DNA from: Candidatus Desulforudis audaxviator MP104C
Lineage (GTDB): Bacteria > Bacillota > Desulfotomaculia > Desulfotomaculales > Desulforudaceae
Reading direction: 5' to 3'
Assembly (NCBI RefSeq): GCF_000018425.1
Contig: NC_010424.1
Location: 744,001 to 808,000, forward strand
DNA length: 64,000 bases
The position numbers and the translations under genes are program-made. The notes under the pieces were generated by a model that was given only the letters and a program-made list of their open reading frames with translations, was not told the DNA's origin and did not search any database. This document shows, in pieces, positions 2,821 through 7,183 of this stretch. How positions within the stretch are numbered: position 1 is the first letter of the stretch; each line of letters starts with the position of its first letter.

Positions 2821-3327
2821 GTGTCCCCGATGCGCAGATCCCTTTGGATTCTTGCTTTGGCTTTAATCTTGGCCTTCGCCCTCGTCCTGCCGGCCGCGGC
2901 CCAACCCACGGTCACCGTAGACGGCCAGGCGCTTGCCTTCGACGTGCCGCCGGCGGTTGAGCAGGGCCGCACGCTGGTTCCATTGCGGGCCATCTTCGAG
3001 GCCCTGGGCGCAGACGTGGCGTGGGACGCCGCCACGCAAACGGTCACCGGCACGAAGGGTGCCACGACCGTCAGGTTGACCATCGGCTCCAGGACCGCCT
3101 TTGTCTCTGGCCAGGCTGTGACCCTGGACGTGCCAGGGAAGATCATGGGCGGCCGCACGTTGGTGCCGCTGCGCTTCGTCGGCGAGAGCCTCGGCGCGGA
3201 GGTCGTGTACGACAGCGGGCGGATCACCATCCGGTCCGGTGATGCAGCACCCGCGCCCTCCGCTCCGACGGCCGGGGCCAAGGTGCACTTCATCGACATT
3301 GGCCAAAGCGACGCCATCTACATTGAG
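2821..3327 (+). pseudogene. 5' part of a split stalk-ComEC-ComEA-like gene
   Basis: GTG 2821 follows GGAGG by 10 bases. A signal peptide (about residues 5-28) is followed by a copper amine oxidase N-terminal-like stalk domain with two GRTLVPLR units, then by KVHFIDIGQSDAIYIE, the first strand of the ComEC/Rec2-type metallo-beta-lactamase domain. The host frame ends at 3327, where an IS605 element begins, and resumes at 5024 in exact register. The full protein would be exported, anchored at the wall by the stalk domain, with nuclease-like MBL and DNA-binding HhH modules. That suggests DNA uptake or extracellular DNA processing, by inference from domain identity. Confidence 0.8.
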
Positions 3328-5023
3328 AAATTAGCCGCCGCATCCTTCCCATTTTAATGGGGAGTCAAGGCGGCCAGACTTTAGGAGCACTTGTTTTTGC
3401 AATTACTGCCATGGTACAATGAAGCCATGGCAGGTGAAGAAAATGCCCGTGCTCAAAAACGTAATCTCAAGCAAACAACGCATTAAGAGATTTATCACCG
3501 GCACCCCGGAGATGATCCGGCAGACGGAAGAAATCTACCGGGCAGTTTTGGGTTTTTACCTGAACGTCATTCACGACAACCTCGATAAGCTGCCCGAATG
3601 GAACAGGAATTCCGGCACGAGGGCGCTGGAAAAACTGACCGTCAGGACCGAACCCCGCACGAACAGGAAGACCGGGGAAAAATTCGGCGGCAACCCCAAC
3701 CCGCCTTACCCGATAGACACCGTTTGGCCCAAGTTTCCCGCATATTTGCGCCGGGCAATTATTGCCAAGGCTATCGGGATGGCACAGAGCTGGTATTCCA
3801 ACTACCGGCGGTGGCTCAGGAAAAAAGAAAGGATGCAGGCCAGGAACGAAAGGCGTGTCGCCGAAGGCAAAAAGCCGATACCTTTCGACGAGCACCCGCC
3901 AAAGTACCCTACGGCGGGGAACGTTGGTATGACCTTCTACAAGGGTGACTTTAAAAACCTTTCGCTGAAAACCAACACCATCCAGCTGAAAGTCTGGGAC
4001 GGCTATGACTGGCGGTTCATCACCGTGGAGGTTGAGCCCACCAGTCACTCTAGAAAGCTCCATCTGGATGATTCCTGGGAGATGACCGTGCCCTCCATTT
4101 ACGAAAAAGAGGGCCTCTTCTGCCTGGTGACCGCTTTCGAGAAGAAGTCCAACGTCATCAAGTTCGCCGACTACTACCTGTCTAAGAACCCGAAAGTGCT
4201 TGCCGTGGACTTGAACCTGGGTCGCAGGAACCGGGCGGTGTGCGCCCTGGTGGGCAAGGGCGGTACGGTTCACAAAGTCAGACACATCAGCCTGGCGGCG
4301 TGTAACACGACGGACGTCCACCGTCTGCTGGGGCTCATTGCCCGGGACGTGAGCGGTCTGGGGATAGTCCCGAAGGGCCACCGGCCCTGCAAGAGGCTCT
4401 GGCGCAAGGTCCGCGCGGTGAATGACAATTATGCCCACCATTTAAGCAAACAGTTGGTTGACCTTGCCGTGGAGTGGGGTGCAAGGGTCATCGTCTTCGA
4501 GAACCTGAAACGCTTCAGGCCGGACAGGGACAAGCACGGTTCGGCCAGGATGCGCCGGAGGATTGGTTACTGGTTGCACCGGAGGGTGATTAAGCATACC
4601 GCGTACAAGGCAAAAGTGCGGGGCATACTGGTTGCTCTTATCCCTCCGAAGGACACCAGCAACCGGTGTTCGTTGTGCGGCTCGCTGGATACTTCAAGAG
4701 ACGGCAACGTTTTGAAGTGCAGGAACTGTAGCATTGTTCACAACAGCCACATCAACGCTGCCATTAACACTGGGACGGCCTGGTTCGTTCGGGAGGAAAA
4801 GCGGTTGCGACAAAAAACCGCTTGACCGTTTTGCGAAAGCCTGCGACTCCCGAAAGGGAGGGGTCGCCGCCGGGACGACGTTCCCGGTTGGTGTCCGGGA
4901 ATCCAGGAACCCGTCCAGCCTAAGGGGTCAGGCAGGTCTGGGTGGCAGCCCCGCTGCCGCATGCCGAGACTTCGCCCGTGCCTATGGATGGATGCCCTCC
5001 ACTTCAGTGGAGGGAGGATTCAC
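3328..5023 (+). mobile_element. IS200/IS605-type element 1 (tnpB only, no tnpA)
   Basis: The boundaries come from the interrupted gene: host codons end ...ATTGAG at 3327 and resume TTGCCGGAC at 5024 in frame. The left end holds a nested hairpin, outer GCCGCC/GGCGGC and inner CTTCCCAT/ATGGGGAG (about 3333-3373). The right end has a hairpin CCCTCCACT/AGTGGAGGG with TTCAG at its tip, followed by GAGGATTCAC. Both hairpins are typical of single-strand transposition by a TnpA. No tnpA is present, so it moves only in trans. The sequence just before the right end would hold the guide-RNA scaffold of TnpB (inference). Confidence 0.8.
3443..4825 (+). CDS. tnpB: TnpB-like protein with altered RuvC-III site
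   Basis: A TnpB-family RNA-guided nuclease homologue of 460 residues. RuvC-I is intact (LAVDLNLG, Asp256 counting from ATG 3443), RuvC-II is intact (VIVFENL, Glu353) and the zinc ribbon is intact (CSLC...CRNC). In RuvC-III the usual Asp before x-Asn-Ala-Ala is replaced: NSHINAAIN has His436 (codon CAC at 4748-4750). The third catalytic acid is thus missing and the enzyme may not cut. The start is uncertain: ATG 3419 overlaps a TACAAT promoter-like motif, whereas ATG 3443 follows AGGTGA. It is the only gene of IS605 element 1. Nuclease-dead TnpB relatives that act as RNA-guided repressors are known, but nothing here proves that role. Confidence 0.85.
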   Translation: MPVLKNVISSKQRIKRFITGTPEMIRQTEEIYRAVLGFYLNVIHDNLDKLPEWNRNSGTRALEKLTVRTEPRTNRKTGEKFGGNPNPPYPIDTVWPKFPAYLRRAIIAKAIGMAQSWYSNYRRWLRKKERMQARNERRVAEGKKPIPFDEHPPKYPTAGNVGMTFYKGDFKNLSLKTNTIQLKVWDGYDWRFITVEVEPTSHSRKLHLDDSWEMTVPSIYEKEGLFCLVTAFEKKSNVIKFADYYLSKNPKVLAVDLNLGRRNRAVCALVGKGGTVHKVRHISLAACNTTDVHRLLGLIARDVSGLGIVPKGHRPCKRLWRKVRAVNDNYAHHLSKQLVDLAVEWGARVIVFENLKRFRPDRDKHGSARMRRRIGYWLHRRVIKHTAYKAKVRGILVALIPPKDTSNRCSLCGSLDTSRDGNVLKCRNCSIVHNSHINAAINTGTAWFVREEKRLRQKTA

Positions 5024-5071
5024 TTGCCGGACAACGTGGACATTCTGATCGACGCTGGCGACACTGGTTAC
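5024..5071 (+). pseudogene. Middle scrap of the stalk-ComEC-ComEA-like gene
   Basis: Sixteen codons of host gene remain between the two IS605 elements: LPDNVDILIDAGDTGY, the second strand of the ComEC-type MBL fold (consensus xxVLIDAG). It joins in frame to codon GAG at 3327. The next MBL part, which should carry the HxHxDH metal site, is found nowhere in the window. About 200 bases were therefore lost when or after element 2 arrived. Confidence 0.8.
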
Positions 5072-6488
5072 AAACCGCCGCGGGAAGGCCCGCCTCCTTC
5101 AGGGGGGGCGGGATGAAAGCGGCTGTTTGCCAAAAACATTGGTTTGTGGCACAATATGGTTAGAAACCAACAAGGGCAGGAAACTGCATGCGCGTCATCC
5201 GGGGATACAAGTTCAAACTAAAAACCACGCCAGAACTGCAACGGGCCTTCGCTACCATGGCCGGACACGCCCGCTTTGTATGGAATAAAGCCCTGCGGTT
5301 GAATTTGGATCGGCTGGAGCGCAAAGCCCCGATCATGTGGTACTCTGATCTCTGCGGGCTCCTGCGGCTCTGGAAACAATCCGAAGAATACGGCTTTCTG
5401 GCCGAAGCGCACTCCCAAGTCCTTCAGCAAAAGCTCAAGGACTTGGACCGGGCCTTCGCAGACACTTTCGACAAAAACCAACCGCTCAAAAAACAGCCCC
5501 GCTTCAAAAAGAAGGGCCGGGACGACAGCTTCCGGTTCCCGCAAGGCGTGAAGATCGACAACCGCCGCGTCTGCCTACCCAAAATCGGATGGGTCGGGTT
5601 CTTCAAAAGCCAAGAAGTGCCCGGCACGATCAAGCAGGCCACCGTCACCCGCGAAGCCGACGGGTGGTACGTCTCCTTCCAGGTCGAAATAGAGCTGCCC
5701 GATCCCGTTTCGCATACAGAGTCCATGATCGGGCTGGACCGGGGCGTAGACGTCTTCGCCGCCACGTCCGAAGGCGAACTGGTAACGCCGGTGAATGCAT
5801 TGAAAAACGCTCTGGACAAGCTGGCACGGCTGCAGCGGAAACTGGCCCGCCAAAAAAAGTTCTCCGAAAACTGGCGAAAGACCAGAAACCGGATCGCCAA
5901 ACTGCACCAGAAGATCGCCCGGACGCGTCACGACTTCCTGCACAAGCTCTCCAGCAAGATCAGCAAGAGCCACGCTGTAGTCGCGCTGGAAGACCTGCCG
6001 GTCGGGAACATGACGCGCTCGGCGAAGGGCACCCTGGAAAACCCCGGCCGCAACGTCAGGGCCAAGTCTGGCTTGAACCGCGCCATCCTGGATCAGGGCT
6101 GGAGCATGTTCGAACGCATGCTGGAGTACAAACTGAACGAACATGGCGGACAAGTTGTACCTGTACCCGCGCCAGGAACCAGCCACACCTGCTCGGCATG
6201 CGGGCACACCGATCCGGAAAGCCGCACCAGCCGCAACCTGTTCCGATGCGTGAAGTGCGGGCACACGGAACACGCCGACGTCAACGCCGCCAAGGTAATC
6301 CTCCAAAGAGCGAAAGTCAAGCTGGCGGCATAAACCTTAAAACGCCGCGGGGCACGCGGTGTCTGCCTGTAGAGGGTTAGAGCGAAGGCTCCCCAACGAA
6401 GCAGGAACCAGCGGGAAATCGCAAGAAAATACCGCCCCTGGTTACCCAGGGAATCCCACCCCCTTCAGGGGGTCGGGAGGATGTCAAC
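5072..6488 (+). mobile_element. IS200/IS605-type element 2 (tnpB only)
   Basis: The left end begins right after GGTTAC with AAACCGCCGCGGG and a nested hairpin (outer CCGC/GCGG, inner CCCGCCTCC with a TTCA tip and GGGGGGGCGGG, about 5072-5125). The right end has ACCCCC TTCA GGGGGT then CGGGAGGATGTCAAC, ending at about 6488. The same left-end design recurs at 47.48 kb and, inverted, at 8.87 kb, so these belong to one family. There is no tnpA gene. The element sits inside the competence-like gene, next to element 1. Confidence 0.8.
5188..6333 (+). CDS. tnpB: TnpB RNA-guided endonuclease, catalytic triad intact
   Basis: A 381-residue TnpB with all expected parts: the N-terminal TnpB helix-turn-helix region, RuvC-I Asp184 (MIGLDRG), RuvC-II Glu268 (VVALEDL), a zinc ribbon CSACG...CVKCG, and RuvC-III Asp364 (EHADVNAAKVIL). 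TnpB uses a guide RNA made from the element right end to cut sites that lost the element, which keeps the transposon in the population. The 155 bases after the stop, up to 6488, would encode that scaffold, and bases from 6489 would be the native guide. Start ATG 5188 has a weak AGGAAA ribosome site. It makes a useful internal comparison with the two altered TnpBs in this window. Confidence 0.9.
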   Translation: MRVIRGYKFKLKTTPELQRAFATMAGHARFVWNKALRLNLDRLERKAPIMWYSDLCGLLRLWKQSEEYGFLAEAHSQVLQQKLKDLDRAFADTFDKNQPLKKQPRFKKKGRDDSFRFPQGVKIDNRRVCLPKIGWVGFFKSQEVPGTIKQATVTREADGWYVSFQVEIELPDPVSHTESMIGLDRGVDVFAATSEGELVTPVNALKNALDKLARLQRKLARQKKFSENWRKTRNRIAKLHQKIARTRHDFLHKLSSKISKSHAVVALEDLPVGNMTRSAKGTLENPGRNVRAKSGLNRAILDQGWSMFERMLEYKLNEHGGQVVPVPAPGTSHTCSACGHTDPESRTSRNLFRCVKCGHTEHADVNAAKVILQRAKVKLAA

Positions 6489-7183
6489 AGCGCTACTGGG
6501 CCGCGGTCCGGGCGGAGAGCGCGGACTACATGAAGGTGGCCGGCCAGTCCTGGACCTTCGGAAACTGCACCTTCGATATTCTCGGGCCCACTCACACGCA
6601 CCGAGACTTAAACGACAATTCGGTGGTTGCCAGACTCTCTTGTCCCGGCGGCTCGTTCATCTTCACCGGCGACGCGGAGAAGGACGGGGAGGGGGCCATC
6701 CTTCACAGGAACCTGGACGCCAACATATTGAAGGTCGGCCACCACGGGAGCAGGACCTCGACCACGGATGCATTCCTGGCCAAGGTGAGCCCGGATGTCG
6801 CCGTGATCATGGTCGGGGATGGGAACCGTTACGGCCACCCGCACGAAGAAACTCTGGCCAAGCTGGCGGCCGCCGGAATCGAGATTTACCGGACCGACCT
6901 CCACGGCAACATCGTGGTTTCGTTGACCGACCGCGGTTATTCCGTCAGCACCCAGAGGACGGCGGCCGTTCAGCCGATGCCGTCGCCGTCTCCCCGCAAA
7001 GTGAACATCAACACGGCTACGCTGGAAGAACTTCAGCAGATCGTCCACATCGGGCAGAGCAGGGCCGAGGAGATCATCCGCCTGCGCCCGTTTGCCTCGC
7101 TGGACGACCTGAGCAGGGTGAGCGGCATCGGACCAAGCAGGTTGGCTGACATTAAAGAACAGGGTGTGGCTTACGTAAAATAA
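6489..7183 (+). pseudogene. 3' part of the stalk-ComEC-ComEA-like gene
   Basis: The frame (open from 6359 through the element end) encodes the second half of a ComEC/Rec2-type MBL domain: DLNDNSVVARL, FIFTGDAEKDGEG, ILKVGHHGSRTST and GHPHEETL, followed by a linker of Pro/Ser and a ComEA-like helix-hairpin-helix domain (KVNINTATLEELQQI, SRVSGIGPSRLADIK). ComEC MBL domains are thought to degrade or process incoming DNA, and ComEA HhH domains bind DNA; both in one exported protein with a stalk is an unusual combination. The first metal-binding motif is missing because of the deletion at element 2. Without a start codon and signal it should be inactive. Confidence 0.85.

What the first reader, a model, noticed from the sequence alone, without database searches (positions are those of the whole stretch)
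4748..4750. TnpB of IS605 element 1 has His instead of the RuvC-III Asp
RuvC-I Asp256 and RuvC-II Glu353 are present and the zinc ribbon is intact, but the Asp before x-Asn-Ala-Ala is His436 (NSHINAAIN). The long open frame is undisturbed, so selection may keep a non-cutting or altered protein.
Basis: seen in the sequence. Interest (0 to 1): 0.6.

Follow-up and report, generated by a model that had tools for sequence, protein, structure and literature searches.

The report
Transposon TnpB with histidine active site
A jumping gene in a deep-underground bacterium carries an RNA-guided DNA-cutting protein whose third active-site aspartate has been replaced by histidine; every close relative found keeps the histidine and selection preserves the protein, so this is an altered enzyme rather than a one-off broken copy, but whether it still cuts DNA is untested.

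Summary
Confirmed: codon CAC at 4748-4750 is His436 of a 460-aa TnpB (start 3443). Asp256, Glu353 and the zinc ribbon are intact. It is not a lone mutation. All four close homologues found have His: the window copy, a 97% copy elsewhere in the same chromosome, a 90% copy on an IMG/VR contig and a truncated 76% relic in a Bacillota MAG. Relatives at 33-37% identity keep Asp, except one double mutant. The His motif occurs on 1 IMG/VR contig (the Asp motif on at least 120) and in 1 of 398 Bacillota genomes (Asp 25). With His already present the protein stayed under purifying selection (dN/dS 0.125, window versus IMG/VR), equally in the nuclease half. The 198-nt guide-RNA/right-end region is 96.5% conserved, against 79% at third codon positions. 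The element (3328-5023) is a canonical TTGAG-targeted IS605-type tnpB-only insertion, with flank-derived guides that differ between copies, so it is not a domesticated TldR. Best reading: a D-E-H active site giving an attenuated or metal-altered RNA-guided nuclease, since His as third ligand is active in Thermus/Deinococcus RuvC. Main rival: a non-cutting RNA-guided binder. Sequence cannot separate them. The genome is 'Ca. Desulforudis audaxviator' MP104C. New variant of a known kind.

The parts
3323..3327 (+). TTGAG target pentanucleotide left of the element (predicted TAM)
   Evidence: TTGAG abuts the left end in the window, the second genomic copy and the IMG/VR copy
3328..5023 (+). IS605-type, tnpB-only insertion element (1696 bp), no target duplication
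   Evidence: ends conserved among copies with unrelated flanks; joining the flanks restores an open reading frame...AIYIE|LPDNVDILIDAGD...
3334..3374 (+). left-end imperfect palindrome GCCGCC...GGCGGC
   Evidence: seen in the sequence; conserved in three copies
3443..4825 (+). tnpB1, 460 aa
   Evidence: open frame; Pfam Cas12f1-like_TNB above cut-off; NCBIfam guided_TnpB hit below its curated cut-off, 82 versus 100 bits; AlphaFold model matches Cas12f and ISDra2 TnpB structures
4208..4210 (+). RuvC-I Asp256 codon
4499..4501 (+). RuvC-II Glu353 codon
4667..4729 (+). zinc ribbon CxxC...CxxC (Cys409-Cys429)
4748..4750 (+). His436 (CAC) at the RuvC-III Asp position
4826..5023 (+). predicted omegaRNA scaffold and right end
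   Evidence: 96.5% identical to the IMG/VR copy versus 79% at third codon positions; folds at -100 kcal/mol, z = -3.4; no Rfam match
4995..5014 (+). right-end hairpin CCCTCCAC-TTCA-GTGGAGGG
   Evidence: seen in the sequence and in the predicted fold
5024..5043 (+). predicted guide segment taken from the flank
   Evidence: inferred from known TnpB biology; the flanks differ between copies

Best explanation
The element is a mobile, tnpB-only IS605-type insertion sequence whose TnpB belongs to a small lineage that fixed Asp-to-His at the RuvC-III position once, before its members spread. The protein still folds like TnpB/Cas12f, still has its omegaRNA and still takes a guide from whatever lies right of the insertion. 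I think it most likely keeps cutting the vacated donor site (TTGAG plus guide), using Asp256 and Glu353 as before and His436 as a neutral ligand for the first metal. That would give a slower or metal-shifted nuclease, as in Thermus/Deinococcus RuvC. Shown here: the substitution, its conservation, its rarity, purifying selection, copies at different sites, and guide-RNA conservation. Inferred: metal binding by His436, residual cleavage, and any benefit of attenuation.
For: His in all four close homologues; the four form one fully supported clade and one change of label suffices. Asp256 is kept in the three copies that cover it and Glu353 in all four. dN/dS is 0.125 overall, 0.110 for residues 1-249 and 0.143 for 250-460, so the nuclease half is not clearly relaxed. 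The guide-RNA region is more conserved than silent sites. Guides are flank-derived and differ among copies, as expected for homing. Precedent: in Deinococcus-Thermus RuvC the third ligand is His, the enzyme is active, and H143D makes it more active (PMC3834835); D. radiodurans RuvC with that His is active and all four active-site residues are essential (PMC9228767); slicing Argonautes use a DEDH tetrad (PMC10772731). A mutational scan of ISDra2 TnpB suggests nuclease activity may be selected downwards in transposons (PMC11844463).
Against: No activity data. Canonical TnpB/Cas12 nucleases use D-E-D. Cas12m2, with His in its RuvC triad (though at RuvC-I, and with Glu also changed), binds only one Mg and does not cut (PMC10442227). 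In RuvC the His is accompanied by a further Asp on the same helix, which this TnpB lacks. The second genomic copy has lost 79 bp of its guide-RNA scaffold and has an insert behind its left end, so only one copy in this genome looks complete.
Confidence: 0.48

Rival explanations
1. Nuclease-dead RNA-guided DNA binder kept on a mobile element: His436 abolishes cleavage but the complex still binds TTGAG-flanked DNA matching the flank, silencing or marking vacated sites or regulating the element.
For: TldRs and Cas12m show that TnpB-family proteins with broken RuvC sites can be kept for DNA binding (PMC13418256; PMC10442227; PMC11013384). Purifying selection and guide-RNA conservation fit binding as well as cutting.
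Against: Asp256, Glu353 and the rest of RuvC are about as constrained as the rest of the protein. Guides are not fixed and no partner gene is shared between loci, unlike described TldRs. A relative that looks dead (L045) has lost two acids, not one.
Confidence: 0.36
2. The protein is irrelevant and its conservation reflects constraint on DNA or RNA features, or recent spread.
For: The ends and guide-RNA region are very well conserved; all copies are close relatives.
Against: Codon-level constraint over the whole ORF (98 synonymous versus 51 non-synonymous changes, window versus IMG/VR, about 1e-28 under neutrality in a simple binomial) needs selection on the protein.
Confidence: 0.07
3. Lone inactivating mutation or sequencing error in a decaying copy.
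For: Copy 2 and the MAG copy are structurally damaged.
Against: Same residue in four copies from three sources, one with a synonymous change at the His codon; intact frames in three.
Confidence: 0.02
4. Another acidic residue completes the site, so the protein is an ordinary nuclease with a rearranged triad.
For: TnpB active sites can be rearranged: the RuvC-II Glu is moved in pro-Fanzors and Fanzors (PMC10711439).
Against: No acid near His436 is shared by the clade; the conserved Glu451-Glu452 lie about four helix turns along the predicted helix 435-459.
Confidence: 0.07

Closest known systems
TnpB of IS200/IS605 elements (ISDra2 TnpB; structures 8H1J, 8EXA)
   Same: fold, RuvC-I Asp, RuvC-II Glu, zinc ribbon, flank-derived guide position, TTGAG target close to ISDra2's TTGAT (the latter from memory), no target duplication
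   Different: RuvC-III Asp is His; longer protein (460 aa); Pfam OrfB_IS605 model does not match; no tnpA in the element
Cas12f (AsCas12f1; 8DZJ, 7WJU), best structural match
   Same: closest fold (Z about 19) and best profile match in the C-terminal half
   Different: sits in an insertion sequence with flank-derived guides rather than serving a CRISPR array; His in place of the third Asp
TldR, TnpB-like nuclease-dead repressors
   Same: altered RuvC site in a TnpB under selection
   Different: many TldRs are described as tied to non-transposon genes; here each copy sits in a mobile element at an unrelated site with a different flank-derived guide
Cas12m (V-M)
   Same: His in a RuvC triad of a TnpB descendant
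   Different: His is at RuvC-I (H-D-D); CRISPR-associated; shown to bind and not cut
Deinococcus-Thermus RuvC and Argonaute DEDH
   Same: His as the last metal ligand of an RNase H-fold nuclease
   Different: different protein families; RuvC has a further Asp on the same helix

Membership tests
IS200/IS605-type element | insertion 3' to a fixed short target without target duplication | tested here: met
   TTGAG at the left end of three copies; window flanks join cleanly in frame
IS200/IS605-type element | subterminal hairpins at both ends | tested here: met
   left palindrome 3334-3374 and right hairpin 4995-5014
IS200/IS605-type element | Y1 transposase tnpA in the element | tested here: not met
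   no tnpA ORF within 3328-5023; four Y1 genes lie elsewhere in the genome. tnpB-only elements are a known subset, so it is filed as tnpB-only
TnpB family | RuvC plus Cas12f1-like TNB zinc ribbon and TnpB/Cas12f fold | tested here: met
   PF07282 51 bits over cut-off 26; fold match to Cas12f and TnpB, Z 17-19
TnpB family | D-E-D catalytic triad | tested here: not met
   third residue is His436; filed as a variant
TnpB family | RNA-guided DNA cleavage | not testable with these tools
   needs biochemistry
TldR | mutated RuvC nuclease site | tested here: met
   His436; loss of activity itself not tested
TldR | stable association with a non-transposon gene | tested here: not met
   copies lie in unrelated flanks and within element ends
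TldR | RNA-guided repression without cutting | not testable with these tools
   needs experiments

The most novel reading that the evidence does not exclude
A still-mobile insertion sequence is maintained by a TnpB that binds but does not cut (or cuts very slowly) through a fixed D-E-H active site, which would mean that RNA-guided binding or deliberate attenuation, rather than full donor-site cleavage, helps a transposon persist.
Probability: 0.4. Interest if true: 0.7.

Novelty: new variant of a known kind. Interest (0 to 1): 0.5.

Why it matters
Altered TnpB active sites are known mostly from proteins that left their transposon. Here the altered site is in a transposing element with an intact guide RNA and under selection, so it offers a natural test of whether TnpB's benefit to a transposon needs full cleavage. 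It also offers a simple reciprocal mutant pair (H436D here, D361H in ISDra2 TnpB) to learn what the third ligand does.

Tried and rejected
Rfam search of the element: no match. Searches for closer relatives in plasmid and phage records gave only matches under 60% identity. A family-profile scan of IMG/VR gave no new close member. The order and class searches covered the same 113 genomes and gave no further His member. The only cognate-like site in the genome with three or fewer mismatches, other than the occupied one, matched at chance level. Papers most likely to have catalogued this clade (the 2023 PNAS TnpB census and the 2024 TldR paper) are not held, so prior listing cannot be excluded. 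One mutational-scan paper includes a heat map that may hold the value for D361H, but figures are not held.

Full report
What is there. The genome holding the window is 2,349,476 bp in one contig, which is exactly the size published for 'Candidatus Desulforudis audaxviator' MP104C (PMC5385130). The codon at 4748-4750 is CAC, His436 of a 460-aa TnpB that starts at ATG 3443. Asp256 (RuvC-I), Glu353 (RuvC-II) and the CxxC...CxxC ribbon are present. A profile of the clade aligned to solved Cas12f structures puts His opposite the RuvC-III Asp, and so does a 26-sequence alignment. An AlphaFold model (mean pLDDT 80, pTM 0.62) has the complete TnpB/Cas12f fold; the best matches are AsCas12f (Z 19.5) and, among TnpBs, ISDra2 TnpB (Z 17.1), with His436 at the start of the terminal helix.

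The element. Comparison of copies gives exact ends: 3328-5023, preceded by TTGAG (3323-3327), with no target duplication. Joining the flanks restores an open frame (...AIYIE|LPDNVDILIDAGD...) in a gene for an MBL-fold protein. There is no tnpA inside. Four Y1 transposase genes elsewhere in the genome could act in trans; this is inference. The second genomic copy (C1:1531094-1532626, 98% DNA identity) has an insert after the first 51 bp of its left end and a 79-bp deletion in its guide-RNA scaffold. The IMG/VR copy is complete. The MAG copy is a 138-aa 3' remnant.

Is the His peculiar to this copy? No. All four copies have His, in the contexts NSHINAAIN (two), NSHVNAAIN and DSHISAAIN, with one synonymous CAT. 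They form one clade with full support on a long stem (1.47 changes per column). On the tree, His versus Asp needs one change of label. The relatives outside the clade, at about 33-37% identity, have Asp where the motif can be read; L045 instead has Ala, together with Gly at RuvC-I.

How rare is it? A DNA pattern for C-x2-C-x6-His-[hydrophobic]-N-A-A-x-N hits one contig in all of IMG/VR, the copy already in hand. In 398 Bacillota genomes the His form is in one (this genome, two sites) and the Asp form in 25. The pattern is narrow, so His in other sequence contexts would be missed.

Selection. Because all copies share His, parsimony places it before they diverged, so their differences accumulated with His in place. 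Window versus IMG/VR: 98 synonymous and 51 non-synonymous changes, dN/dS 0.125; 0.110 for residues 1-249 and 0.143 for 250-460. Window versus MAG fragment: 0.09, though dS is near saturation. Window versus copy 2: 0.26. These are pairwise Nei-Gojobori values and the binomial test is simple. The 198-nt right end is 96.5% identical between window and IMG/VR copies, whereas third codon positions are 79% identical. It folds more stably than shuffles (z = -3.4). Protein and guide RNA therefore look maintained together.

Mechanism. Two readings survive. First, a D-E-H nuclease: His is the third, metal-A, ligand in Thermus RuvC, where it works but less well than Asp (H143D raises activity; PMC3834835; PMC5389553), and eukaryotic slicing Argonautes use DEDH (PMC10772731). 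Similar constraint on RuvC and on the rest of the protein, and the flank-derived guides of a homing element, favour this. A mutational scan of ISDra2 TnpB proposes that nuclease activity may be under negative selection in transposons (PMC11844463), which would give attenuation a reason. Second, a non-cutting binder: Cas12m2, with H-D-D, binds one Mg, does not cut, and silences by binding (PMC10442227), and TldRs are RNA-guided repressors (PMC13418256). I weigh these at about 0.48 and 0.36. Nothing computed here measures cleavage.

Comparison with the known. It is a TnpB by fold and zinc ribbon, but it fails the D-E-D feature and is filed as a variant. It is not a TldR by genetic setting: copies lie inside element ends at unrelated sites with different guides. 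Earlier censuses that may list this clade could not be read.

Limits. Only two intact independent lineages are in hand (this genome and the IMG/VR contig) plus one relic. The stem is long and no Asp-bearing close sister was found, so the order of changes on the stem is unknown.

Noticed in passing
L045 (G484:C34:113559-114644): An open 438-aa TnpB relative from the same order has Gly at RuvC-I and Ala at RuvC-III but keeps the RuvC-II Glu: a candidate nuclease-dead TnpB.
   Followed up: partly
window 2821-3327, 5024-5066 and about 6481-7183: A gene with a copper-amine-oxidase-like N-terminus and a ComEC-like MBL hydrolase domain is broken by two IS605-type insertions side by side; the middle of the hydrolase domain also seems to be missing.
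   Followed up: partly
window about 5067-6487: The second element encodes a conventional TnpB (381 aa, HADVNAA motif); a 99.7% identical copy lies at about C1:892 kb.
   Followed up: partly
L051, L052, L053: Three near-identical IS605 elements with a 133-aa Y1 TnpA and a 444-aa TnpB of another lineage lie elsewhere in the genome; possible source of transposase in trans.
   Followed up: no
L016 and L017: TnpB relatives that keep the RuvC-III Asp but have lost most zinc-ribbon cysteines.
   Followed up: no
L004 1079-1464: About 386 bp inserted after the left end of the second His-TnpB copy, containing the start of a transposase-like frame.
   Followed up: no
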